Positions 1 to 38,148 of a stretch of 38,782 bases of DNA are shown piece by piece. Under the pieces are notes generated by a model. It ran no database searches. It was not told the origin of the DNA and saw only the letters and a list, made by a program, of their open reading frames with translations. The translations under genes were made by a program, and so were the position numbers. Each line of letters opens with the position of its first letter. Positions within the stretch are counted from its first letter, which is position 1. The DNA is from Pseudomonadota bacterium (GTDB lineage Bacteria; Pseudomonadota; Alphaproteobacteria; SP197), in contig JBCCIS010000050.1 in NCBI GenBank assembly GCA_039028155.1, positions 1 to 38,782 of the forward strand. Direction: 5' to 3'.

Positions 1-54
1 GCAGGCGGCCCCGACATGGGCGGCATGGGCGGCATGGGTGGTATGGGCTTCTAG
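1..54 (+). CDS. groEL: Chaperonin GroEL, C-terminal tail only (5' part outside window)
   Basis: The first 17 codons in frame 1 read as a Gly-Gly-Met repeat tail (GGMGGMGGMGF) followed by TAG. This flexible tail is the hallmark C-terminus of GroEL, the 60-kDa chaperonin that folds cytoplasmic proteins with GroES. Only the tail is in the window, so nothing can be said about the ATPase or apical domains. The gene is followed by a terminator at 194-230, consistent with it ending the groESL operon. Confidence 0.93.
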   Translation, partial: AGGPDMGGMGGMGGMGF

Positions 55-193: not shown

Positions 194-230
194 GGGGTCG
201 CGGCTCATGCCGCGGCCCCTTTTCTTTTTT
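194..230 (+). terminator. Intrinsic terminator of the groEL transcript
   Basis: An 11-bp GC-rich stem (194-204 with 209-219, one G-T pair, 4-nt loop) is followed directly by TTTTCTTTTTT. This is a textbook Rho-independent terminator on the plus strand. It ends one base before the stop codon of the convergent gene at 232. Confidence 0.92.
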
Positions 231-231
231 A

Positions 232-1290
232 TCAGCCGGTGCCGCAGACCGTGTGAAATCTCTCGGTCGCCGCGTCGCGGCCGACAGCGTCGACCCGCTT
301 CATTTCGTCAAAAAACCGCATCGCTTCGGCCTTCGCGTCATAGCGCGACTCCGCCTGGAACGCGTCGCGCCATGCATACACCAGGACGCAGACGGCAAGG
401 CGGATCATCACGCAGTCATAGATACACGCCACCTCGTCGTTGGAAAGCGGATTGACCGCCGCATAACTCTCCAGAAACGCCTCGATGAAGCTGATCGGGT
501 CATCGCTCGACGCGGTCAGTTCCATGGCCGCGGTCGAGACATCCTGGATCAGCGGACCGTCGACCATGTCGCCGAAGTCGATCACGCCGCTGATTTCGGC
601 ATCATCACCGGGCACAGCCAGGATGTTCCCGCGATTGGCATCGTTGTGAATGACCTGATGGCGCAGGCCCGCCATCGTCGGCAGTGTCTGCGCGGCAAAC
701 CGATCGAGTGTCTCGCGCACCATCTCTTCGGCCGCGCCATCGCCGATCAACGCAAGGTGCTGGCGCATGGCGTCGGCACGGCGGATATCCCAGACCAGAG
801 CCTGATCCGGCGCGGCCCGTTCGAACGACCTGAGCGCCAGCCCAAGTTTGGCAATCGTTGAGCCGACCGCGCGCATGATCGGCGGCGTCAGTGTCATCTC
901 CCTGAGCGGCACGCCGGGACAATAGGTCAGCGCGAAGACCATCAGCTCCTCGCCCGCCTCACTGGTTACCCGGGTCCGCGCCTCGCCCGCGTGCGTCATG
1001 ACGACGCGCGGCACGGGCAGGCTAGGGTCCGTGCTTTCGATGTGGCGCAGCGCCGCGATCTGAAAGTCGATGACGGCGGGGTCCTCGTTGACGTTGCAGA
1101 CCTTCAAGACGATGTCGGCGCCGGAACCGGCGTTGACGCGAAAGTTCCGATCGCGCTCACTCGATTTTGGTTCCGCGTCGGCATCGATACCGAACAGCGT
1201 TACCGCCGCATGGCGCGCTTCCTGTTCGGAGAAAACGGGCGGATTGGATGCCAGCGCCATCAGCGCCGGTGCTTCAGCCGACGTACTCAC
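232..1290 (-). CDS. Hydroxylysine-kinase-like phosphotransferase (APH/choline-kinase fold)
   Basis: The 352-aa protein has the aminoglycoside-phosphotransferase fold: a Lys in VLKV near residue 63, the catalytic-loop motif VIHNDANRGNIL (Asp217, Asn222) and the metal-binding motif VIDFGD (Asp238). The N-terminal pattern (FSEQEARH, then ERDRNF, then LPVPRVV) is the one seen in 5-hydroxylysine kinase (HYKK) relatives, which phosphorylate a hydroxyl on an amino acid or amino alcohol using GTP or ATP. The start is GTG with GGGGAG about 5 nt upstream. It follows the DMFase-like large subunit by 15 bp on the same strand, so co-transcription is likely. The substrate is unknown; a link to the product of the DMFase-like enzyme is inference. 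Confidence 0.82.
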   Translation of the reverse strand: MSTSAEAPALMALASNPPVFSEQEARHAAVTLFGIDADAEPKSSERDRNFRVNAGSGADIVLKVCNVNEDPAVIDFQIAALRHIESTDPSLPVPRVVMTHAGEARTRVTSEAGEELMVFALTYCPGVPLREMTLTPPIMRAVGSTIAKLGLALRSFERAAPDQALVWDIRRADAMRQHLALIGDGAAEEMVRETLDRFAAQTLPTMAGLRHQVIHNDANRGNILAVPGDDAEISGVIDFGDMVDGPLIQDVSTAAMELTASSDDPISFIEAFLESYAAVNPLSNDEVACIYDCVMIRLAVCVLVYAWRDAFQAESRYDAKAEAMRFFDEMKRVDAVGRDAATERFHTVCGTG

Positions 1291-1305
1291 GCAAACTCCC
1301 CTTCG

Positions 1306-3561
1306 TCAAGGTGCAGGAAACGCTTTGGGATCAAGGAACCGGCGCAATACGTTACCGGTCAGCTTGGCGACGTTGTTGTCGAAACTGTTCCAGGTCAAGC
1401 TGCCGATCCAGGCAATCGAGCCGGTCGAGAACACAGCACCGCCGCCGGGTGTTTCGAAGAACACCATGTCGGCGCGCAGGTTTGGGTTCTGCGAACCGTC
1501 GATCAGCGGCGAAGCGTTGTCGATCTCCTCGGGGCCTGGGTAGTAGGTATCGGAATGACCTTCCGATGATGCCAGCACGAGCGCGTGGGGTGGCGATCCC
1601 TTGCCGCGGTCATAGCGGTCGACCTCAATCCCGGCCGCGCCGCCGCCGACCGTGCCGAAGTCGCCGATGATCTCGTCATCGATGCCGTCAAAGACGAAGG
1701 TGGCGCGTGGGTCGTTGCTGGCTTCGGTGCGCCGGTAATACGACGAAACATCAAAGCCCTGCCCGGCCATGCCGACACCGGCGATGGCGTGAATGGGACG
1801 TCCCTGGCGCTCCCACATGCCGCCATAGGTGCCATCGAAGCTGTGGTAGTACTCGCCGCCTTCCGCGACCCAGTCGCGAATGCCGTCCTCGCCGCGCCTA
1901 AGCTCGATCACGCCCGGCATGTCCGGATGGTAGGCGACACGCCAGTAGAAGCCGTTACCGCCCAGATACATCATTCGGCCGCCCTGGTTGAGCCATGCCG
2001 ACAAGGCGTCGTGCATGGCGAGCGAATAGTATTCGGGGTGGCTGCCGGTCAGCACCACGCGGTAGCGGTTCAGGAGGTCCAGGCCCTCCTCATTCAACTC
2101 CTCATCGGTCGCGACGTCGCACGCGAAACCCTCGTGATCCAGCCAGTCGATCAGCGGCAGGTCGGCATTGAACTGCCAGGGATAGGTCCCGGCCGGACCG
2201 ACCCAGGCGTTGGTGACACCGGGCCGGAAGTTGAGCACCGGCCTGAGGCGCGAGCTGTAGCAGACACCGCTGCCGTCGCCATGAACGTCATAGAGCGAGT
2301 AGCCGAGATCGGGTCGCTGATCGAGCAGCAGATCCTGGGCCGAGAGACCGTTCAGACCATTCGAGAACGCCTGCAGATAACCACCGCCTTGTACCGCCGA
2401 ATGTTCGTTGGCATAGGCCATGTAGCTGGCGCTGGGCATCAGAAACAGGGCATCGGCGGTCGCCTTGCCGCGCGGCGGCAGGACAACGAAGGGGATGTGG
2501 TCATCCTGATCGCCCGCCACGATCCGCGCCGCGTAGATGCCGCTGGCGAGATCGGCGGGAACGTCGAGCGTCACGTCGTCATCCCAACCGCAGTCATAGA
2601 TGTCGTCGTCGTGGAAGTGGATGGCGCCGTACTGTTCCGGCGCCTTGGTCCAGTCGAGCACCGCACCGGTCCAATTGTGCCCCTTCATGGCGCGGGCCGG
2701 CAGATTGACCAAGCGCCCGTCGTGGCCGTTTGGACCGGTGTCGATAATGCGGTCGCCGGTCGTGGCCAGCGCGAAATCCCAAGCCGCGACCGTCGTCGCA
2801 CATTGACTGGGGTCGTTCTGAAAATGCAGCGCGCCGGCCTCGTCAAGGACGCTGGATGCGACGCGTGGCGCGTCGATCTTGCCATTGAAATGATGCGCGG
2901 TTGCGCACGGTCCTCGTGCATCGTCACCGGCGGCGGCAAGCCGGAACTTGAGTGCGGCCGTGTCGTGCTGGTTTGCAACGTCACCAGTTTCGTCGGCGCA
3001 CCGCGCCATGCCCGGGTACTCCTTTGCCGGCCGCTGCCAGACGCGGACACGACCGGTGCCTCCATCAAAGCTGGCGCCTACCCATGCCCATTCGCGCGCC
3101 AGAAGAGGCACGCCGGCCGAGATCGCACCGTCGGCGCCGCTACCCAGCTTCAGTGCGACAGCACCGGTGTCGTCGAGAAAGAGCGCGGCGCCGCGCCCGG
3201 CGCCGGCATCCCAGGAGCCCATGACCACCTGCTCGCCGTCGCCCGGCAGGGTCGGCCAGATCCAGGCGCACAGGCTGAAGCTTGCCGATGCCAGCAAGTC
3301 GGCATCGTCATCGATGACCGCGAAGGATCCCGCGTGGATCGGCTGGACGCGGGCCGGGTAATCGTCGGAGGCCGGTGTCGCCACCACGTGCTCGATCAGG
3401 CCGCGTCCATCGGGATGCAAATCCCCGGAGACGAGCCGCACGATATCAGCGCGGAAGCTCGCCGTGCCTTCCGCACTGACCTTGAAGCCAATGGTCTCGC
3501 CCGGAGCCACGGCGAGGCGATCGGCATAACCGATGATCTTCTTTTCAGGCAGCCCGCTCAC
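1306..3561 (-). CDS. N,N-dimethylformamidase-like large (beta) subunit
   Basis: This 751-aa protein resembles the large subunit of N,N-dimethylformamidase, a non-haem iron amidase that cleaves DMF to dimethylamine and formate. Residues about 75-240 look like a LamG/concanavalin-type beta domain. The C-terminal half carries the family signature SASYMAYANE (Tyr380, Tyr383), then GYSLYDVHGDG (Tyr421, Tyr424) and TGSHPEYYS (His508, Glu510). From memory, iron in DMFase is held by two Tyr and one Glu, the Tyr pair being 41 residues apart and the Glu in an H-x-E; the spacing here (383 to 424) and the HPE motif agree. It starts with GTG overlapping the small-subunit stop (GTGA), implying translational coupling. 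The true substrate is probably another amide. Confidence 0.85.
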   Translation of the reverse strand: MSGLPEKKIIGYADRLAVAPGETIGFKVSAEGTASFRADIVRLVSGDLHPDGRGLIEHVVATPASDDYPARVQPIHAGSFAVIDDDADLLASASFSLCAWIWPTLPGDGEQVVMGSWDAGAGRGAALFLDDTGAVALKLGSGADGAISAGVPLLAREWAWVGASFDGGTGRVRVWQRPAKEYPGMARCADETGDVANQHDTAALKFRLAAAGDDARGPCATAHHFNGKIDAPRVASSVLDEAGALHFQNDPSQCATTVAAWDFALATTGDRIIDTGPNGHDGRLVNLPARAMKGHNWTGAVLDWTKAPEQYGAIHFHDDDIYDCGWDDDVTLDVPADLASGIYAARIVAGDQDDHIPFVVLPPRGKATADALFLMPSASYMAYANEHSAVQGGGYLQAFSNGLNGLSAQDLLLDQRPDLGYSLYDVHGDGSGVCYSSRLRPVLNFRPGVTNAWVGPAGTYPWQFNADLPLIDWLDHEGFACDVATDEELNEEGLDLLNRYRVVLTGSHPEYYSLAMHDALSAWLNQGGRMMYLGGNGFYWRVAYHPDMPGVIELRRGEDGIRDWVAEGGEYYHSFDGTYGGMWERQGRPIHAIAGVGMAGQGFDVSSYYRRTEASNDPRATFVFDGIDDEIIGDFGTVGGGAAGIEVDRYDRGKGSPPHALVLASSEGHSDTYYPGPEEIDNASPLIDGSQNPNLRADMVFFETPGGGAVFSTGSIAWIGSLTWNSFDNNVAKLTGNVLRRFLDPKAFPAP

Positions 3562-3860
3562 GGCGTCAGGTCCTCGCCGGTAAGACCCTTCCAGCGCAGC
3601 CGGAAGACCGCGCGTTCGGCCTCGAGTGGGTCGTCATATGCCACATCGCCGATCAACTCGACCGGTGTGCCGCGTGCGCCGACCTTCTGCGCCAGGCGCC
3701 ATTTCCGAAACGGCTCAATGCAGACCAGGATGTAGGGCGGCAAGGACGGATCGGTCCGCATGGCATTCAGCAGGCGTCTGAGGTCACCGCTATGGGGACC
3801 GGCGGGCTGCGCCATGAATTCCGCGACAAGATCCTTGCGGCTGGGATCAATGACAGGCAT
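3558..3860 (-). CDS. N,N-dimethylformamidase-like small (alpha) subunit
   Basis: This 100-aa protein lies directly upstream of the large subunit, in the same order as in known DMFase operons. Its pattern (YILVCIEPFRKWRLAQ, then GTPVEL, then DPLEAERAVFRLR) matches in outline what I recall of the roughly 130-aa DMFase small subunit, a helical protein that packs against the large chain. It is shorter at the N-terminus. The ATG at 3860 lacks an obvious ribosome-binding site. It is divergent from the phosphatase at 3962, leaving about 100 bp for both promoters. Identification rests on position and weak sequence pattern together. Confidence 0.68.
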   Translation of the reverse strand: MPVIDPSRKDLVAEFMAQPAGPHSGDLRRLLNAMRTDPSLPPYILVCIEPFRKWRLAQKVGARGTPVELIGDVAYDDPLEAERAVFRLRWKGLTGEDLTP

Positions 3861-3961
3861 GGACGTGAAGCATGGTTGGTTGAAGGCCGCCGCATCTTGG
3901 CCCGGCCCGCGCCAATGATCCAGTAGGCCGATCGACGGGCCGACAGAATAAAGAGGCCTTC

Positions 3962-4768
3962 ATGGTTGATCCCGAACGTGTCGCCGCCATCGTTGCCGAG
4001 ACCGCGGCCACCGACATCATGCCCCGCTTCCGCCAACTGGCGGCCGGCGACGTTCGCGACAAGGCGCCGGGCGACATGGTGACCGTGGCCGACGAAGCTG
4101 CCGAGGCGACGCTGTCGCGCCGGCTGGGCGAGCTGCTTCCCGGCGCGCTTGTCGTTGGCGAGGAAGCGGTGGCGGCCGACCCGGCGGTGCTGGACCGCCT
4201 CACTGCCGATCAGCCGGTGTGGATCATCGACCCCGTCGACGGCACGACGAACTTTGCGGCCGGCCTGCCGCTGTTCGGCGTGATCGTGGCGCTTGCCCGT
4301 AACGGTGAAACCCAGATGGCGTGCCTCCATGATCCCGTGCATGGCGACATGGCGTTGGCGTCGCGCGGCGACGGCGCGACCTGCAACGGTAAGCCGATCC
4401 ACGTGTCGTCGCCGAAGGAGCCGGCACGGATGTTCGGTACGGTCAAACTTCGTTTCGGCGACCGCGCCCTACCACTTCGGATCGTCGAACGCTGCCAGCA
4501 GGTGCCGCCCTTTGTCGACCTGCGGTGCGCGGCGCTGGAGTATCTGGCGCTCGCCTCAGGCCGGCTCGACTTCGGTCTATATCGCAAGCTGGCGCCGTGG
4601 GATCACGCGGCCGGCATGCTATTGCACGCGGAGGCCGGCGGTCACGCCCGGAATCTCGATGGCACGGCCTATCGTCCGGACGGCCCGCTCCAAACCGAGG
4701 GGATGTTGATCGCGCCGGATGAAGCAAGCTGGACCGCGCTTTACGATATCTTAATCGCCACCGGCTAA
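3962..4768 (+). CDS. Inositol monophosphatase family protein
   Basis: The 268-aa protein has the Mg-dependent phosphatase signatures of the IMPase/SuhB/HisN superfamily: GEE at 66-68, IIDPVDGTTNF at 88-98 (metal ligands Asp90 and Asp93) and LAPWDHAAG near residue 214. Full family length. It would hydrolyse a phosphate monoester such as inositol-1-phosphate, histidinol phosphate or PAP; the motifs do not tell which. The start is supported by AGAGG five bases before the ATG. It stands alone between a divergent operon and a 247-bp spacer. Confidence 0.9.
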   Translation: MVDPERVAAIVAETAATDIMPRFRQLAAGDVRDKAPGDMVTVADEAAEATLSRRLGELLPGALVVGEEAVAADPAVLDRLTADQPVWIIDPVDGTTNFAAGLPLFGVIVALARNGETQMACLHDPVHGDMALASRGDGATCNGKPIHVSSPKEPARMFGTVKLRFGDRALPLRIVERCQQVPPFVDLRCAALEYLALASGRLDFGLYRKLAPWDHAAGMLLHAEAGGHARNLDGTAYRPDGPLQTEGMLIAPDEASWTALYDILIATG

Positions 4769-21460: not shown

Positions 21461-23917
21461 TCAGCCGCGCATGCGCTCACCCTTAGGATCAAACGGCGCC
21501 GACAGCGACGCCGTTGCCGGGAACCGGTCACCGGCAATCTCGATCTCGTAGGACGCCGACAGAATGTCGTCACGGCTGATCGGACCGTCTTCGGACTCAA
21601 CATAACCCATGGAGATCGGCTTCTCGATGGAATAGGCGTAGCCGCCTGACGTGGTCGTGCCGACCAGCTTGCCGTCTCGCCATATCGGCTCCTCGTGCAG
21701 CATGCGGGGCGCGCCGGGCTCACCGTCGACCGTGAAAATCGCCAAGCGACGATTAACGCCGTTTTCGCGCTGGGCGGCAATGGCTTCGCGGCCAATGTAG
21801 TCGACGTTCTTGTCACGCGCGACGGCGAACCCAAGGCCCGCCTCGATCGGGGTGTCCTCCGGCCCGATGTCATGGCCCCAGTGCTTGAAGCCCTTTTCAA
21901 GCCTCAGACAGTCCTGACAGTGCAGGCCCGCATGGCGCAGACCGTACTCCGCGCCGGCTTCGGTCAGGACCTCGTGGACGTGGGCGGCGAATTCGATGGG
22001 CACATAAAGCTCCCAACCGAGATCGCCGACATAGGAAACCCGCTGGCCGCGCACCATGGCATAGCCCAGGCCGAACTCCTGCGACGTGCCGAACGGGAAG
22101 GCCTCGTTCGACAGATCGACGTCCGTCAGCGATGACAGAAGCGCGCGCGACTTCGGTCCCATGACGCCCAAGACGGCAAAGGCCGACGTGACGTCGGTCA
22201 TGGTGACGTTGGCGCCCGCATCCATATTGCGCGCCATCCAATCCCAATCGTGCAATCTGGTCGTCGATCCGGTCACGACAAGAAAGCGTTCTTCGCCCAG
22301 GCGCGTCACGGTCAGATCCGTCTCGATGCCGCCCTTCGCGTTGAGCATCTGGGTATAGATCGCGCGGTTCTCTTCCTGCGCGATGTCGTTGGCGCACAAC
22401 CGCTGAAGCTGGTGTTCGGCATCGCCGCCCTGAACCTCGAACTTGGCGAATGGCGTGAGGTCATAGAGAGCGACATCGTTGCGTGTCGCATGGGCCTCAC
22501 GCGCCGCCGCGTCGTGCCAGCATGGTTTGCCGAATGTATAGGTGTATTCGCGGGCCTCGTCCCCTTCGGCATAAAACATCGGACGCTCCCAGCCAGACGC
22601 GACGCCCATCACGGCACCCTGTTCCACGAGCTTGTCGTGATAGGGCAGCCGCCGCGCGCCACGCGCGGTCTCGGGCTGGCGGTCGGGCCAGTGCATGGCA
22701 TAGAGCAGGCCGAGCGATTCCACCGTGCGGTCGCGCAGATAGGTGCGCGCCTTCTGGAACGGCTCGACACGCGTGATGTCGACATCCCACAGATCCATCG
22801 GCGATTCGCCGTCGACGATCCACTGGGCCAGTGCCTTGCCGATACCCGGCGCCGAGGCGATGCCGATCGAGTTGAGGCCGGCGGCGACGTAGATGTTCTG
22901 GGTCTCTGGTGCACGGCCCATGTAGTAGCGGTTGTCCGGCGTGAAACTCTCCGGCCCGTTGAAGAACTGGCGGATGCCCGCCTCGGCAAGCGCTGGAATA
23001 CGTTTCAGGCCGCCGTCCATCAGGATCTCGAAGTGATCCCAGTCTTCCGGCAGGACCGTGAACGAGGCGTCGTCCGGTACGCCGTCGACTGCCCATGGTT
23101 TGGCGACCGGTTCGAACCCGCCGACCAGGAGCTTGCCCGCGTCTTCCTTGATGTAGATGCAGGCGTCGTAGTCGCGGAGCACGGGTAGATCGGCGGGCAC
23201 GTCGGGCATCGGCTCGGTCACGATGTACATGTGCTCGGCAGCGTGGAGCGGCACGGTCACGCCGATCGCGGCGGCCAGGTCGCGCGTCCACATGCCGCCG
23301 GCCAAGACGACATACTCGCATTCGATCGTACCGTGATCGGTCACGACCGCGCTGGCGCGCCCGTTCGCCGTCTCGATGCGGCGAGCCGGACACTGTTCGA
23401 TGATCTTGGCCCCACCCATGCGCGCGCCCTTCGCCAGCGCCGCCGTCGTGTCGGTCGGGTTGGTCTGGCCGTCCTTGGGCATGAAGACCGCGCCGACAAG
23501 ATCTGACGTCTCGGTCACGGGATGCAGCTTGGCGACCTCGGCTGGCGTCAGAACCTCGACGTCGACGCCAAATGCGTTGGCCATGGACGCGGCGCGCTTA
23601 AGCTCGGTAAAGCGTTCTTCGGTCTGGGCGACGGTAATCGCGCCGTTCTGTTTGAAGCCGGTCATCTGGCCGGTTTCGGCCTCCAACTTCGGGTAGAGCT
23701 CGACGGAATAGGCCGCGAGTTGGGTCAGGTTGCGCGATGGCCGCAACTGGCCGACCAGGCCGGCGGCGTGCCATGTCGTGCCGGATGTCAGCTGGTCGCG
23801 CTCCAGCAGCACAACGTCGGTCCAGCCCAACTGGACGAGGTGATAGGCAATGCTGCAGCCGACGATGCCGCCGCCGACAACGACCACCTGAGCGCGGTCG
23901 GGCAAGTTCTGAACCAT
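21461..23917 (-). CDS. Dimethylglycine/sarcosine dehydrogenase-like FAD and folate protein
   Basis: The 818-aa protein joins an N-terminal FAD-dependent amine oxidoreductase (VVVVGGGIVGCS, residues 11-22; LLERDQLTSGTTWHAAG, 37-52) to a C-terminal aminomethyltransferase (GcvT) module from about residue 430, with the GcvT C-terminal barrel at the end. His50 in TTWHAAG matches the His that carries covalent FAD in dimethylglycine dehydrogenase. Such enzymes demethylate dimethylglycine, sarcosine or related N-methyl compounds and pass the carbon to tetrahydrofolate. The start at 23917 has GGAGGA a few bases upstream; the open frame extends to 24016 but would overlap the divergent gene and lacks family residues. 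The exact substrate is uncertain. Confidence 0.9.
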   Translation of the reverse strand: MVQNLPDRAQVVVVGGGIVGCSIAYHLVQLGWTDVVLLERDQLTSGTTWHAAGLVGQLRPSRNLTQLAAYSVELYPKLEAETGQMTGFKQNGAITVAQTEERFTELKRAASMANAFGVDVEVLTPAEVAKLHPVTETSDLVGAVFMPKDGQTNPTDTTAALAKGARMGGAKIIEQCPARRIETANGRASAVVTDHGTIECEYVVLAGGMWTRDLAAAIGVTVPLHAAEHMYIVTEPMPDVPADLPVLRDYDACIYIKEDAGKLLVGGFEPVAKPWAVDGVPDDASFTVLPEDWDHFEILMDGGLKRIPALAEAGIRQFFNGPESFTPDNRYYMGRAPETQNIYVAAGLNSIGIASAPGIGKALAQWIVDGESPMDLWDVDITRVEPFQKARTYLRDRTVESLGLLYAMHWPDRQPETARGARRLPYHDKLVEQGAVMGVASGWERPMFYAEGDEAREYTYTFGKPCWHDAAAREAHATRNDVALYDLTPFAKFEVQGGDAEHQLQRLCANDIAQEENRAIYTQMLNAKGGIETDLTVTRLGEERFLVVTGSTTRLHDWDWMARNMDAGANVTMTDVTSAFAVLGVMGPKSRALLSSLTDVDLSNEAFPFGTSQEFGLGYAMVRGQRVSYVGDLGWELYVPIEFAAHVHEVLTEAGAEYGLRHAGLHCQDCLRLEKGFKHWGHDIGPEDTPIEAGLGFAVARDKNVDYIGREAIAAQRENGVNRRLAIFTVDGEPGAPRMLHEEPIWRDGKLVGTTTSGGYAYSIEKPISMGYVESEDGPISRDDILSASYEIEIAGDRFPATASLSAPFDPKGERMRG

Positions 23918-24009
23918 GCTTCCTCCACACAACACAGCGCGCTCGACCCCCGGGCCGGGCACGCGCATGATAGCTGCCCATCTTGTCCGGTAAATCGAGC
24001 GGATCGTCC

Positions 24010-26052
24010 ATGACAAAACGCATTCAAACCAGCTTCCCCAAGCTGGTACGCGAGATTGAGAACATCTGGATCAAGCTCTCGGACGGAACCCGCCTGGCCG
24101 CGCGGATCTGGCTGCCGGAGGATGCCGAGGAAGACCCGGTGCCGGCGATCCTGGAATACATCCCCTACAGAAAGCGCGATTTCACCCGCAACCGGGACGA
24201 GCCGATGCATGCCTGGTTCGCCGGCCAGGGCTATGCGGCGGTGCGCGTCGACATCCGGGGATCGGGCGATTCGGATGGGGTCCTGGACGATGAATACCTG
24301 CAGGTTCATGAGCTCGACGACGCCTGCGAGGTCATCGCCTGGCTCGCCGACCAGCCCTGGTGCAGCGGCGCCGTGGGCATGATGGGCAAATCCTGGGGCG
24401 GCTTCAACGCGCTACAGGTCGCGGCGCTCCAGCCGCCGGCACTCAAGGCCATCATCACCGTCTGCTCGACCGACGACCGCTATGCCGACGACGTCCACTA
24501 CATGGGCGGCTGCCTGTTGAGCGACAATCTTTGGTGGGGCTCGGCCATGCTGGTCTTCAACGCGCGCCCGCCGGACCCGGCCATTGTCGGCGACCGCTGG
24601 CTCGCCATGTGGCAGGAGCGCCTGGCCGCCATCCGGCCCTGGCCGGTCCGTTGGATGGAGCACGCCCGCCGCGACGCCTATTGGCAGCACGGCTCGGTGT
24701 GCGAGGACTACGGCGCCATCAAGATTCCCGTCTATGCGGTCGGCGGTTGGGCCGACGGCTACTCCAACGCCATCCCTCGGCTGTTACAGCATCTCGATGG
24801 GCCACGCCGCGGTCTGACAGGCCCGTGGGTCCATATCTATCCGCAGGACGGCACACCGGCGCCGGCCATGGGATTTCTGCAGGACGCCGTCAGATGGTGG
24901 GACCGATGGCTGAAGGACACGGAAAACGGCATTGACGGCGAACAGTCCTACCGCGTCTGGATGCAAGACAGCGTCCCGCCGCAATCGACCTATGACGCGC
25001 GGCCGGGACGATGGGTCGCCGAACAGGCTTGGCCCTCGCCGACGATCGAAGAAAGGCGCCTTCACCTGAACACCGACGGGCTTGGGCCCCATCCCGGCCC
25101 TTCAGACACGCTGTCGATTTCGTCGCCTTTGACCACTGGTCTGCTGGCGGGCGAGTGGTGCGGCTTTGGGCTGCCGGGCGAAATCGCGTCGGACCAACGG
25201 GCGGATGATCGGGGTTCCCTGTGTTTCGACAGCGCGCCCCTGGCCGAGCGGACCGAGATCCTGGGCGCGCCGGTTGTCGAGTTGGAGGTCGCCGCCGACC
25301 GGCCGGTTGCCCAGGTTGCGGTGCGCCTCAACGACGTGGCGCCGGACGGTGCTTCGACCAGGGTGACCTATGGCGTCCTGAACCTGACCCACCGCGATAG
25401 CCACCAACACCCGAAGCCTCTGGTGCCGGGTGAGCGGTACCGTGTCCGGGTGCAACTCAACGACATCGCCCACGCTTTCCCACCCGGTCATCGCCTGCGC
25501 ATCGCCGTCTCATCATCCTATTGGCCGATCATCTGGCCGAGCCCGACGCCGGTCACGCTGACTGTCGTGTCGGGCGCCAGCACACTGATGCTCCCGGTTC
25601 GCCCGCCGCGCAGTGACGATGCTGACTTGCCGGCCTTCGACGAACCGGAGACGGCACCGGATGTGCCGACGACGCGCCTCAATCCCGGCCACTTCCGCCG
25701 CGCCATCGAACACGACCTCGTCACCGGCGAGATCGTCTCGCGCCTGGAAATGGAGGGCGGGCTGTTCGGCGTCGATGGCACCTACCGGCTGGACCCAATC
25801 GACCTTGTCATTTTGTCGTCGATGGATCGCCGGTACAGCATTACCGGTGATGACCCACTGTCGGCTCGCGCCGACATCACACAGGTGATCGCGTTGTCGC
25901 GCGACGACTGGCATGTCAAAGCCGATACGTCGATCCACATGTGGTCGACACAGGACGATTTTCACCTGGAAGCCAAGGTCGACGCCTATAACGGCGAGGA
26001 ACTGATCTCGTCACGCCAGTGGAGCGAGCGCGTGCCAAGGGACCTCGTTTGA
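24010..26052 (+). CDS. CocE/NonD family hydrolase (X-Pro dipeptidyl-peptidase S15 fold), copy A
   Basis: The 680-aa protein has an alpha/beta-hydrolase domain with EYIPYRKRDFT, DIRGSGDSDG, nucleophile motif GKSWGGF (Ser128), GWADGY (Asp249) and GPWVHIYP (His275), then a C-terminal jelly-roll domain (about 380-560) as in cocaine esterase and PepX. These serine hydrolases cut esters or amides, including X-Pro peptides. ATG at 24010 is chosen over an upstream in-frame ATG at 23983. There is no signal peptide, so it acts in the cytoplasm. It is very similar to the protein at 36034-38070. It is divergent from the flavoprotein at 21461-23917 and convergent with the GNAT gene. Confidence 0.9.
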   Translation: MTKRIQTSFPKLVREIENIWIKLSDGTRLAARIWLPEDAEEDPVPAILEYIPYRKRDFTRNRDEPMHAWFAGQGYAAVRVDIRGSGDSDGVLDDEYLQVHELDDACEVIAWLADQPWCSGAVGMMGKSWGGFNALQVAALQPPALKAIITVCSTDDRYADDVHYMGGCLLSDNLWWGSAMLVFNARPPDPAIVGDRWLAMWQERLAAIRPWPVRWMEHARRDAYWQHGSVCEDYGAIKIPVYAVGGWADGYSNAIPRLLQHLDGPRRGLTGPWVHIYPQDGTPAPAMGFLQDAVRWWDRWLKDTENGIDGEQSYRVWMQDSVPPQSTYDARPGRWVAEQAWPSPTIEERRLHLNTDGLGPHPGPSDTLSISSPLTTGLLAGEWCGFGLPGEIASDQRADDRGSLCFDSAPLAERTEILGAPVVELEVAADRPVAQVAVRLNDVAPDGASTRVTYGVLNLTHRDSHQHPKPLVPGERYRVRVQLNDIAHAFPPGHRLRIAVSSSYWPIIWPSPTPVTLTVVSGASTLMLPVRPPRSDDADLPAFDEPETAPDVPTTRLNPGHFRRAIEHDLVTGEIVSRLEMEGGLFGVDGTYRLDPIDLVILSSMDRRYSITGDDPLSARADITQVIALSRDDWHVKADTSIHMWSTQDDFHLEAKVDAYNGEELISSRQWSERVPRDLV

Positions 26053-36003: not shown

Positions 36004-36035
36004 GGGCCGGTCGCTTGCGACCGGCCCTTTTTCTT
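36004..36035 (+). terminator. Intrinsic terminator of the substrate-binding protein gene
   Basis: GGGCCGGTCGC (36004-36014) and GCGACCGGCCC (36017-36027) form a perfect 11-bp stem, followed by TTTTTCTT. It serves the plus strand. The T-tract overlaps the stop codon of the convergent CocE/NonD gene at 36034. Confidence 0.93.
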
Positions 36036-38070
36036 ACGCGAGCTGTCGGGGAATACGGCGCGAAAGATGCCGGTCGTACACCCGCTCGCCCGCCTCCTCC
36101 GCAACAATGTCGGCTTCAACAAGGAAGCCGTCAGCGTCCGCGGTGACGGTTGTTGCCGCCTCGATGGCAATATCCCAGTCACCACGACGTTGCGCGATAC
36201 GCCAGGACACCTCGCCGCCGCCGGACAAGGGCTCGCCGTCGGTGATCCACTGGCGTTCGCTGCCTTGGGCATCGACCTCCATGGCGTGGTCGTCAATCCG
36301 ATAGGCACCGTCATCCTTTTCCAAGATCAGTTCGACGCGTCCGCTTGCAAGGTCGCGTTCGAAGCGCCGGACGCGACCGAACGCCCGCAACCACGTCAAC
36401 GCCGGTGGTGGCGGCACTTCGGCGGCGGGGAACGGCGCCGGCGTGGCTCCGGCTCCCTCCGGCCATACCGGCAGATCCAGCTGACTGCCGGATAAATCAA
36501 CGCAGACGGTCGCTTCGGCCGGCGCCGGCCACAGGAGCGGCCACGACCCCGTCGAAAGCGCGATGCGCAGGCGGCTTCCTTGCGCAAAGGACTGCGCGAT
36601 CGCGTTCAGCGTGATGGTGACGTCGTAGTCCTCGCCGGGTCGCAACGCTTCCGGGCTCGCGTGCCCGCCCTGGTGGGTCAGGTTGAGCGCTCCCCAGGAG
36701 ACAAGCGTCGACGTGCCGTCCGGCGCCACGGCGCACAGGCGTGCCACCAATGTGGCGACTGGCTGATCGGAGGCGACGCGCAGGCGCAGTTGTGGCGTTC
36801 CGACGATGCTGAGTTCGGACCCAAGCGGCGGTCCGTCGAAGCACACCGCCAAGGCATCGTCCGGCCGTTGATCAAGCGGCAGTTCGGGGCCGATGCCGTG
36901 GGGATTCCATTCGCCCGTCAGGGTGCCCAGGGACAGCGGCGTCTTGACGTCCACACGTCCCTCGGCCGCCTCACCAAGCGTCCCGTTACCCAGCGGCAGA
37001 TCGTGCCAGACCACATCCGGCGCAGGCCATGCCGTCTGCGTGATCCATCGGCCGGGACGTTCGCTATAGCTCGCGGCGGGCGCCGCCGGTTCCTGCAACC
37101 AGAGCCGCACCATCGCCTCGTTGTCGATGCCGTTGTCATCACCTTTCAACCAGCGATCCCACCAGCGCAACGTCTCCTGCAAAAAGCCGATCGCGGGGCC
37201 TGGCGCGGCGATATGCGGATAACCGTGCGCCCACGGCCCGATCAGACAGCGGCGCGGCACCTTGAGACCGGCCATCAAGCGCAGGGCCGTGTTGGTGTAC
37301 CCGTCGGCCCACCCGGTCACCGCATAGACCGGACACCGAATGGCATCCCAATCCTCGTTGACCGAGCCATGACGCCAGTAGGCATCGCGCGTCGGATGTG
37401 ACATCCACTCCGCCGTCGTGAACGGCAAGTTGTCGAGGCGGTCGCGCCACATGTCGCGCCAGCGTTCGCCGACGACCTCGGGATCGGGCGGGCGCGCAGA
37501 ATAGGCCAGGCTTTGACCGCCCCATGCCAGGTTGTTGCGCAAGAGACAGCCGCCCATGTAGTGGACGTCGTCGGCATAACGGTCGTCCGTTGAGCACAGC
37601 GTGACGACGGCCTTAAGTTCTGGCGGGCGACGCATGGCGACCTGAAGGCCGCTGAAACCGCCCCATGAGATGCCGATCATGCCGATCGATCCGGTGCACC
37701 ATGGCTGCGCGGCAATCCAGGCCAGCGCCTCCAGCATGTCGTCCTGCTCCCGGGCCACGTACTCGTCCATCGGCAGGCCTTCGGAATCACCGGATCCGCG
37801 AATATCCAGGCGAATCGCGGCATAACCATGCCCGGCATACCAGGGGTGGATCAGCTCATCGCGTGGCAGCGTAAAGTCGCGCTTGCGGTAGGGAATGTAC
37901 TCGACGACGGCGGGCACCGGGTTGGTTTCGGCATCGTCCGGTAACCAGATGCGTGCCGCCAGGCGGACGCCGTCCGACATCGGAATCCAGTCATGCGCGA
38001 TTTCGCGTATCGCGCACGGAAACGTGTCGACGATGTTGAGGTCACCGTCAGCAGCAACCAAGTTAACCAT
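36034..38070 (-). CDS. CocE/NonD family hydrolase (X-Pro dipeptidyl-peptidase S15 fold), copy B
   Basis: A 678-aa paralogue of the protein at 24010-26052 with the same layout: EYIPYRKRDFT, DIRGSGDSEG, nucleophile GISWGGF (Ser135), GWADGY (Asp256), GPWAHGYP (His282) and a C-terminal jelly-roll domain. Stretches such as CSTDDRYADDVHYMGGCLL are identical in both. The two are roughly half identical over the first 350 residues by eye, and diverge more in the C-terminal domain. The start at 38070 is chosen because upstream codons do not match copy A; GGGG lies a few bases before the ATG. No signal peptide. The GntR regulator gene lies 78 bp upstream on the same strand. Confidence 0.9.
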   Translation of the reverse strand: MVNLVAADGDLNIVDTFPCAIREIAHDWIPMSDGVRLAARIWLPDDAETNPVPAVVEYIPYRKRDFTLPRDELIHPWYAGHGYAAIRLDIRGSGDSEGLPMDEYVAREQDDMLEALAWIAAQPWCTGSIGMIGISWGGFSGLQVAMRRPPELKAVVTLCSTDDRYADDVHYMGGCLLRNNLAWGGQSLAYSARPPDPEVVGERWRDMWRDRLDNLPFTTAEWMSHPTRDAYWRHGSVNEDWDAIRCPVYAVTGWADGYTNTALRLMAGLKVPRRCLIGPWAHGYPHIAAPGPAIGFLQETLRWWDRWLKGDDNGIDNEAMVRLWLQEPAAPAASYSERPGRWITQTAWPAPDVVWHDLPLGNGTLGEAAEGRVDVKTPLSLGTLTGEWNPHGIGPELPLDQRPDDALAVCFDGPPLGSELSIVGTPQLRLRVASDQPVATLVARLCAVAPDGTSTLVSWGALNLTHQGGHASPEALRPGEDYDVTITLNAIAQSFAQGSRLRIALSTGSWPLLWPAPAEATVCVDLSGSQLDLPVWPEGAGATPAPFPAAEVPPPPALTWLRAFGRVRRFERDLASGRVELILEKDDGAYRIDDHAMEVDAQGSERQWITDGEPLSGGGEVSWRIAQRRGDWDIAIEAATTVTADADGFLVEADIVAEEAGERVYDRHLSRRIPRQLA

Positions 38071-38148
38071 GCATCCCCACCACACCCGTGAGGCCTGCAT
38101 TGCACACCAGGTTGCCGGTCAACGGCAAGCCATCAGCGCGGGCGAACG

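What the first reader, a model, noticed from the sequence alone, without database searches (positions are those of the whole stretch)
232..3860. DMFase-like two-subunit amidase coupled to a hydroxylysine-kinase-like enzyme
Small and large subunits in the known DMFase order overlap by 4 bp, and an APH-fold kinase follows after 15 bp. The iron-ligand-like Tyr and HPE motifs are present. A kinase in this operon suggests that the amide product carries a hydroxyl and is phosphorylated, so the substrate may be an N-acylated amino alcohol or hydroxy-amino acid rather than DMF.
Basis: partly seen in the sequence, partly recalled or inferred. Interest (0 to 1): 0.6.

Follow-up and report, generated by a model that had tools for sequence, protein, structure and literature searches.

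The report
Iron amidase operon with added kinase
These three genes are a real bacterial operon: a two-part iron-dependent amide-cutting enzyme of the known dimethylformamidase family, to which one genus has added a small-molecule kinase related to amino-alcohol kinases; the enzyme is ordinary, and the added kinase hints at, but does not prove, a hydroxylated amine as its product.

Summary
Small (3558-3860), large (1306-3561) and kinase (232-1290) lie head to tail on the minus strand, with a 4-bp overlap and a 15-bp gap. The large subunit is a DMFase homologue: PF20254; 6lvb at E 1e-158; AlphaFold model TM 0.95. It keeps the iron ligands as Y383/Y424/E510 and the catalytic His as H508, all invariant in 116 sequences. 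The small-subunit family profile matches only the DMFase small subunit convincingly (E 7e-10). So the amidase is an ordinary family member; known members differ in substrate, so its own is open. The kinase is an intact APH-fold enzyme related to the kinase half of kinase::class-III-aminotransferase fusions; its best PDB profile match is aminopropanol kinase. But the three-gene order occurs only in this genome and one sister species. The kinase sits just ahead of a terminator-like hairpin that relatives carry directly after the large gene, so it was probably added to an older operon. An amidase-kinase-(phospholyase in trans) route for a hydroxylated amine is plausible but unproven.

The parts
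3558..3860 (-). small subunit of a DMFase-type amidase (100 aa)
   Evidence: profile of 64 homologues matches DMFase small subunit 6lvb_B at E 7e-10; lies just upstream of most related large-subunit genes; G21, W54, A81, F86 invariant
1306..3561 (-). large catalytic subunit of a DMFase-type amidase (751 aa; LamG/pentraxin-like domain plus DMFA2_C)
   Evidence: PF20254 E 6e-98 and PF13385; 6lvb E 1e-158, 8i5a/8huy E 1e-137; model pLDDT 93, TM 0.95 to 6lvb; Y383, Y424, H508, E510 invariant in 116/116
232..1290 (-). APH-fold small-molecule kinase (352 aa), kinase part only, no aminotransferase domain
   Evidence: PF01636 E 2e-26; PRK06148 N-terminus; K63, H215, D217, N222, D238 invariant in 50 homologues; dN/dS 0.08-0.14 against the sister species
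194..231 (-). terminator-like GC-rich hairpin directly after the kinase, with counterparts directly after the large gene in relatives that lack the kinase
   Evidence: sequences read side by side; no terminator program was run on it
3861..3961 (.). intergenic region shared with the divergent inositol-monophosphatase-family gene (3962-4768 +); presumed promoter region
   Evidence: IMP-small-large order kept in eight family genomes including this one; promoter not tested
1..54 (+). C-terminal end of groEL (AGGPDMGGMGGMGGMGF*), convergent with the operon; marks its downstream limit
   Evidence: groEL is at the same place in G002, G003, G006, G012, G013

Best explanation
The locus is a DMFase-family operon. 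Small and large subunits form an Fe(III) amidase in which two tyrosines and a glutamate hold the iron and a histidine assists hydrolysis of an amide to acid and amine (inferred from homology). In this genus a kinase gene was added between the large gene and a terminator-like hairpin, so it is probably read from the same transcript (gene order shown, co-transcription inferred). The kinase belongs to the group that is thought to phosphorylate the hydroxyl of amino alcohols ahead of a class III PLP phospholyase (family shown, activity inferred). The most likely use: the amidase releases an amine that carries a hydroxyl, the kinase phosphorylates it, and a phospholyase removes phosphate and ammonia. 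The lyase would come from elsewhere, the best candidate being the fused 790-aa kinase::class III enzyme on contig C7. The substrate is unknown; 1-amino-2-propanol-, ethanolamine- or hydroxylysine-type amides are candidates.
For: Amidase; mechanism and role of the small subunit from PMC7686228. Kinase: intact motifs, purifying selection, best PDB profile match aminopropanol kinase 6ef6 at E 1e-16, also 6ef6 at Z 25.6, rmsd 3.3, 304 aligned. Its relatives are fused to class III aminotransferase domains or adjacent to such genes. Coupling: 15-bp gap, same strand, kept in two species at 80% kinase identity, placed before the shared hairpin. A candidate lyase exists in the genome, and in the sister species a fragment that runs off its contig end; the one in this genome follows an amino-acid/urea-type ABC transporter on the same strand.
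Against: No other family genome with a related amidase locus has the kinase (0 of 10), and G001 has the amidase but no kinase of this group at all, so the amidase works without it. The phospholyase is not in the operon. The closest solved folds by Z are N-acetylhexosamine and homoserine kinases, so the fold alone does not single out amino alcohols. No substrate is known for either enzyme.
Confidence: 0.42

Rival explanations
1. The kinase is not metabolically coupled to the amidase. It is an extra kinase acquired or duplicated in this genus that landed behind a well-placed gene and serves another pathway, for example the one of the C7 fusion enzyme.
For: The association is confined to two species; relatives keep the amidase without the kinase and the fusion without the amidase beside it. 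The kinase tree places it away from the stand-alone kinases that have a lyase neighbour (AU test p 0.024).
Against: The gene is kept under purifying selection in the same operon position in two species that have diverged by roughly 0.6-0.8 (NG86) or over 1 (YN00) synonymous changes per site. The 15-bp spacing and shared hairpin argue for joint expression.
Confidence: 0.38
2. The kinase is a detoxifying or resistance kinase (amicoumacin kinase or aminoglycoside phosphotransferase type) that sits in the operon by chance or together with an amide-hydrolysing detoxification enzyme.
For: Amicoumacin kinases 6sui/6sum are among the next PDB sequence matches (E 1e-13 and 8e-8) and structural matches; DMFase relatives such as AceAB act on xenobiotics (PMC11573777).
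Against: The nearest homologues are fused to, or next to, class III PLP enzymes, which points to amine catabolism. Identity to true resistance kinases in the fold search is only about 13-21%.
Confidence: 0.1
3. The amidase is a plain formamidase for DMF or other N-alkylformamides, and the kinase is irrelevant.
For: The iron site and catalytic His are fully kept and the nearest solved structure is DMFase.
Against: AceAB, described as highly identical to DMFase, does not act on DMF (PMC11573777), and the solved relatives 8huy/8i5a are named N-acetyl-(R)-beta-phenylalanine acylase. DMFase F693, which narrows the pocket, aligns with N682 here, in a loop of uncertain alignment. The genome has several paralogues.
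Confidence: 0.07

Closest known systems
N,N-dimethylformamidase (DmfA1A2) of Paracoccus, PDB 6lvb
   Same: two-subunit make-up, domain layout, Tyr/Tyr/Glu iron ligands and catalytic His, overall fold (TM 0.95)
   Different: 38% identity in the structural alignment; small subunit shorter (100 against 132 aa); one pocket residue (F693) not kept; kinase gene behind the large subunit
N-acetyl-(R)-beta-phenylalanine acylase, PDB 8huy/8i5a
   Same: homologous large subunit (E 1e-137, TM 0.87)
   Different: 35% identity; acts on an N-acetyl beta-amino acid; its gene surroundings were not examined
AceAB acetamiprid amidase of Pigmentiphaga sp. D-2
   Same: two-subunit DMFase relative (by PMC11573777)
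   Different: acts on acetamiprid; its sequence was not compared here
Microcompartment-associated aminopropanol kinase, PDB 6ef6
   Same: best PDB sequence match to the kinase-group profile (E 1e-16); same fold
   Different: 17% identity; not linked to an amidase as far as tested here
PRK06148/PRK06149-type kinase::class III aminotransferase fusions
   Same: the window kinase matches their N-terminal kinase part (E 1e-70) and groups with such fusions in the tree
   Different: the window protein has no aminotransferase domain

Membership tests
DMFase-type two-subunit amidase | DMFA2_C domain and DMFase-like large subunit | tested here: met
   PF20254 329 bits against cut-off 27; TM 0.95 to 6lvb
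DMFase-type two-subunit amidase | two Tyr and one Glu iron ligands plus catalytic His | tested here: met
   Y383, Y424, E510, H508 by alignment, invariant in 116 homologues; geometry in the model not measured
DMFase-type two-subunit amidase | small subunit encoded directly upstream | tested here: met
   profile match to 6lvb_B at E 7e-10
DMFase (EC 3.5.1.56) in the strict sense | hydrolysis of N,N-dimethylformamide | not testable with these tools
   needs an assay; relatives differ in substrate
Amino-alcohol / hydroxylysine kinase | APH fold with ATP-binding Lys, HxDxxxxN and metal-binding Asp | tested here: met
   K63, H215, D217, N222, D238; model pLDDT 93
Amino-alcohol / hydroxylysine kinase | partner class III PLP phospholyase adjacent or fused | tested here: not met
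   none in the operon, which ends at groEL; a fusion enzyme exists on contig C7 only
Amino-alcohol / hydroxylysine kinase | activity on hydroxylysine, ethanolamine or aminopropanol | not testable with these tools
   needs an assay
PRK06148 fusion subfamily (NF004799) | full-length kinase::aminotransferase architecture above curated cut-off 1128 | tested here: not met
   238.8 bits, N-terminal third only

The most novel reading that the evidence does not exclude
A new three-step catabolic route in one alphaproteobacterial genus: an iron amidase frees an amino alcohol from its N-acyl form, an operon kinase phosphorylates it, and a phospholyase supplied in trans turns it into aldehyde, ammonia and phosphate.
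Probability: 0.3. Interest if true: 0.5.

Novelty: new variant of a known kind. Interest (0 to 1): 0.3.

Why it matters
The DMFase superfamily is widespread: 73 of 385 genomes sampled in the class have a match, and all but one of the 16 genomes held for this family have 4 to 10 matches each. Yet few members have a known substrate. A co-encoded kinase is a rare clue to the chemistry of one amide product and makes that substrate directly testable. The finding also warns that the kinase is a genus-level addition, so its hint cannot be carried over to the wider family.

Tried and rejected
Conservation of the trio beyond the genus: rejected. Small subunit by single-sequence PDB search: nothing, solved with a profile. 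A kinase relative closer than 41% identity outside the genus: none found in the family, class, phylum or plasmid searches. A firm statement that the kinase arose by loss of the lyase domain: the tree puts it with the fusions (grouping with all stand-alone kinases rejected at p 0.024), but fusions forming one clade without it is not rejected (p 0.106), so inside or sister is open; its branch also joins a long one (G015). Literature on bacterial hydroxylysine kinases and on aminopropanol kinase: the held library gave nothing direct. Human hydroxylysine kinase itself was not compared, as no sequence was on hand.

Full report
What is there. The window is contig C50 of an unnamed 5.3-Mb genome; records of near relatives are alphaproteobacterial MAGs. 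On the minus strand, small (3860-3558), large (3561-1306) and kinase (1290-232) follow each other with a 4-base overlap and a 15-base gap. After the kinase come a terminator-like hairpin and then the convergent end of groEL at 1-54. Upstream and divergent lies an inositol-monophosphatase-family gene (3962-4768).

The amidase. The large subunit carries LamG and DMFA2_C domains, matches DMFase 6lvb at E 1e-158 and N-acetyl-(R)-beta-phenylalanine acylase at E 1e-137, and its AlphaFold model (pLDDT 93) overlays 6lvb with TM 0.95. DMFase Y399, Y440 and E521 bind the iron, and H519 is essential (PMC7686228). They map to Y383, Y424, E510 and H508 and are invariant in 116 homologues. N547 maps to N536. 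The small subunit is not recognised singly, but a 64-sequence profile finds the DMFase small subunit at E 7e-10, well apart from the next match at 0.017. The shorter and longer small-subunit types are related (hhalign probability 99). The amidase assignment is therefore firm at family level. The substrate is not: AceAB is described as highly identical to DMFase but inactive on DMF (PMC11573777).

The kinase. It is an APH-fold protein (PF01636) with all catalytic residues and a confident model (pLDDT 93). Its group profile finds aminopropanol kinase 6ef6 first among PDB sequences (E 1e-16), then amicoumacin kinase and homoserine kinase (the name of 6ef6 is given). Fold comparison ranks N-acetylhexosamine kinases (Z 29.7, rmsd 2.9, 318 aligned), homoserine kinase (Z 29.2, rmsd 2.8, 301 aligned) and 6ef6 (Z 25.6, rmsd 3.3, 304 aligned) high. 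In relatives this kinase is fused to a class III aminotransferase domain or encoded next to one. In the tree it groups with the fusions (99/98), and a grouping of all stand-alone kinases is rejected at p 0.024, but inside versus sister to the fusions is open. [quoted passage not shown] Purifying selection (dN/dS 0.08 by YN00, 0.14 by NG86) shows the gene is in use.

Conservation. The small-large pair is widespread. The trio occurs in this genome and in its sister species G003 (L032), where the kinase is 80% and the large subunit 88% identical. In the same taxonomic family G001, G002, G006, G008, G012 and G013 have IMP-small-large at about 65-66% large-subunit identity (in G013 the large subunit aligns in two pieces, 49% and 74%) without the kinase, and groEL follows in G002, G006, G012 and G013 (the G001 contig ends 0.9 kb on; no groEL was seen in G008). 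G004, G015, G011 and G005 have small-large in other surroundings, also without the kinase. Around 80 loci from named genomes and 29 from the class sample no such kinase was found except in the sister species, though some of these loci hold only short flanks. In two kinase-less relatives a similar hairpin follows the large gene directly. Together this points to a gain in one genus of a kinase added to an older operon.

How it may work. Shown: gene order, family membership, intact active-site residues, lineage restriction. Inferred: iron-dependent amide hydrolysis, co-transcription, phosphorylation of the released amine, and elimination by the C7 fusion enzyme, which lies behind an amino-acid/urea-type ABC transporter. 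The kinase is dispensable for the amidase, as G001 has the amidase without any kinase of this group.

Verdict. The family assignment is right. The coupling is plausible only for one genus, and hydroxylysine is one candidate among several.

Noticed in passing
G000 contigs C36, C37, C43, C85 (L002-L007): The genome carries several further DMFase-like large subunits, and most other genomes of the family have 4-10 matches each (G007 has none): a strong expansion of unassigned amidases.
   Followed up: partly
L163:6169-13422 (G000 contig C7): A fused 790-aa kinase::class III aminotransferase gene directly behind an amino-acid/urea-type ABC transporter on the same strand: a likely amine-catabolism operon.
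   Followed up: partly
window 3962-4768: The inositol-monophosphatase-family gene divergent from the amidase pair is kept in eight family genomes including this one, a longer-lived neighbour than the kinase; its role is unknown.
   Followed up: no
L176:2857-4925 (G014): In another genus a DMFase-like small-large pair lies just downstream of groEL in the same direction.
   Followed up: no
L195 (Burkholderia vietnamiensis plasmid pBVIE01): A DMFase-like large gene sits near an amino-acid ABC transporter, a D-amino acid dehydrogenase and an alanine racemase, hinting at N-acyl-D-amino acid substrates.
   Followed up: no
window 23983-26052 and 36034-38100: Two S15 X-Pro dipeptidyl-peptidase-like genes in the same contig.
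   Followed up: no
window 21461-24016: A fused FAD oxidoreductase / aminomethyltransferase-type protein (dimethylglycine or sarcosine dehydrogenase-like).
   Followed up: no
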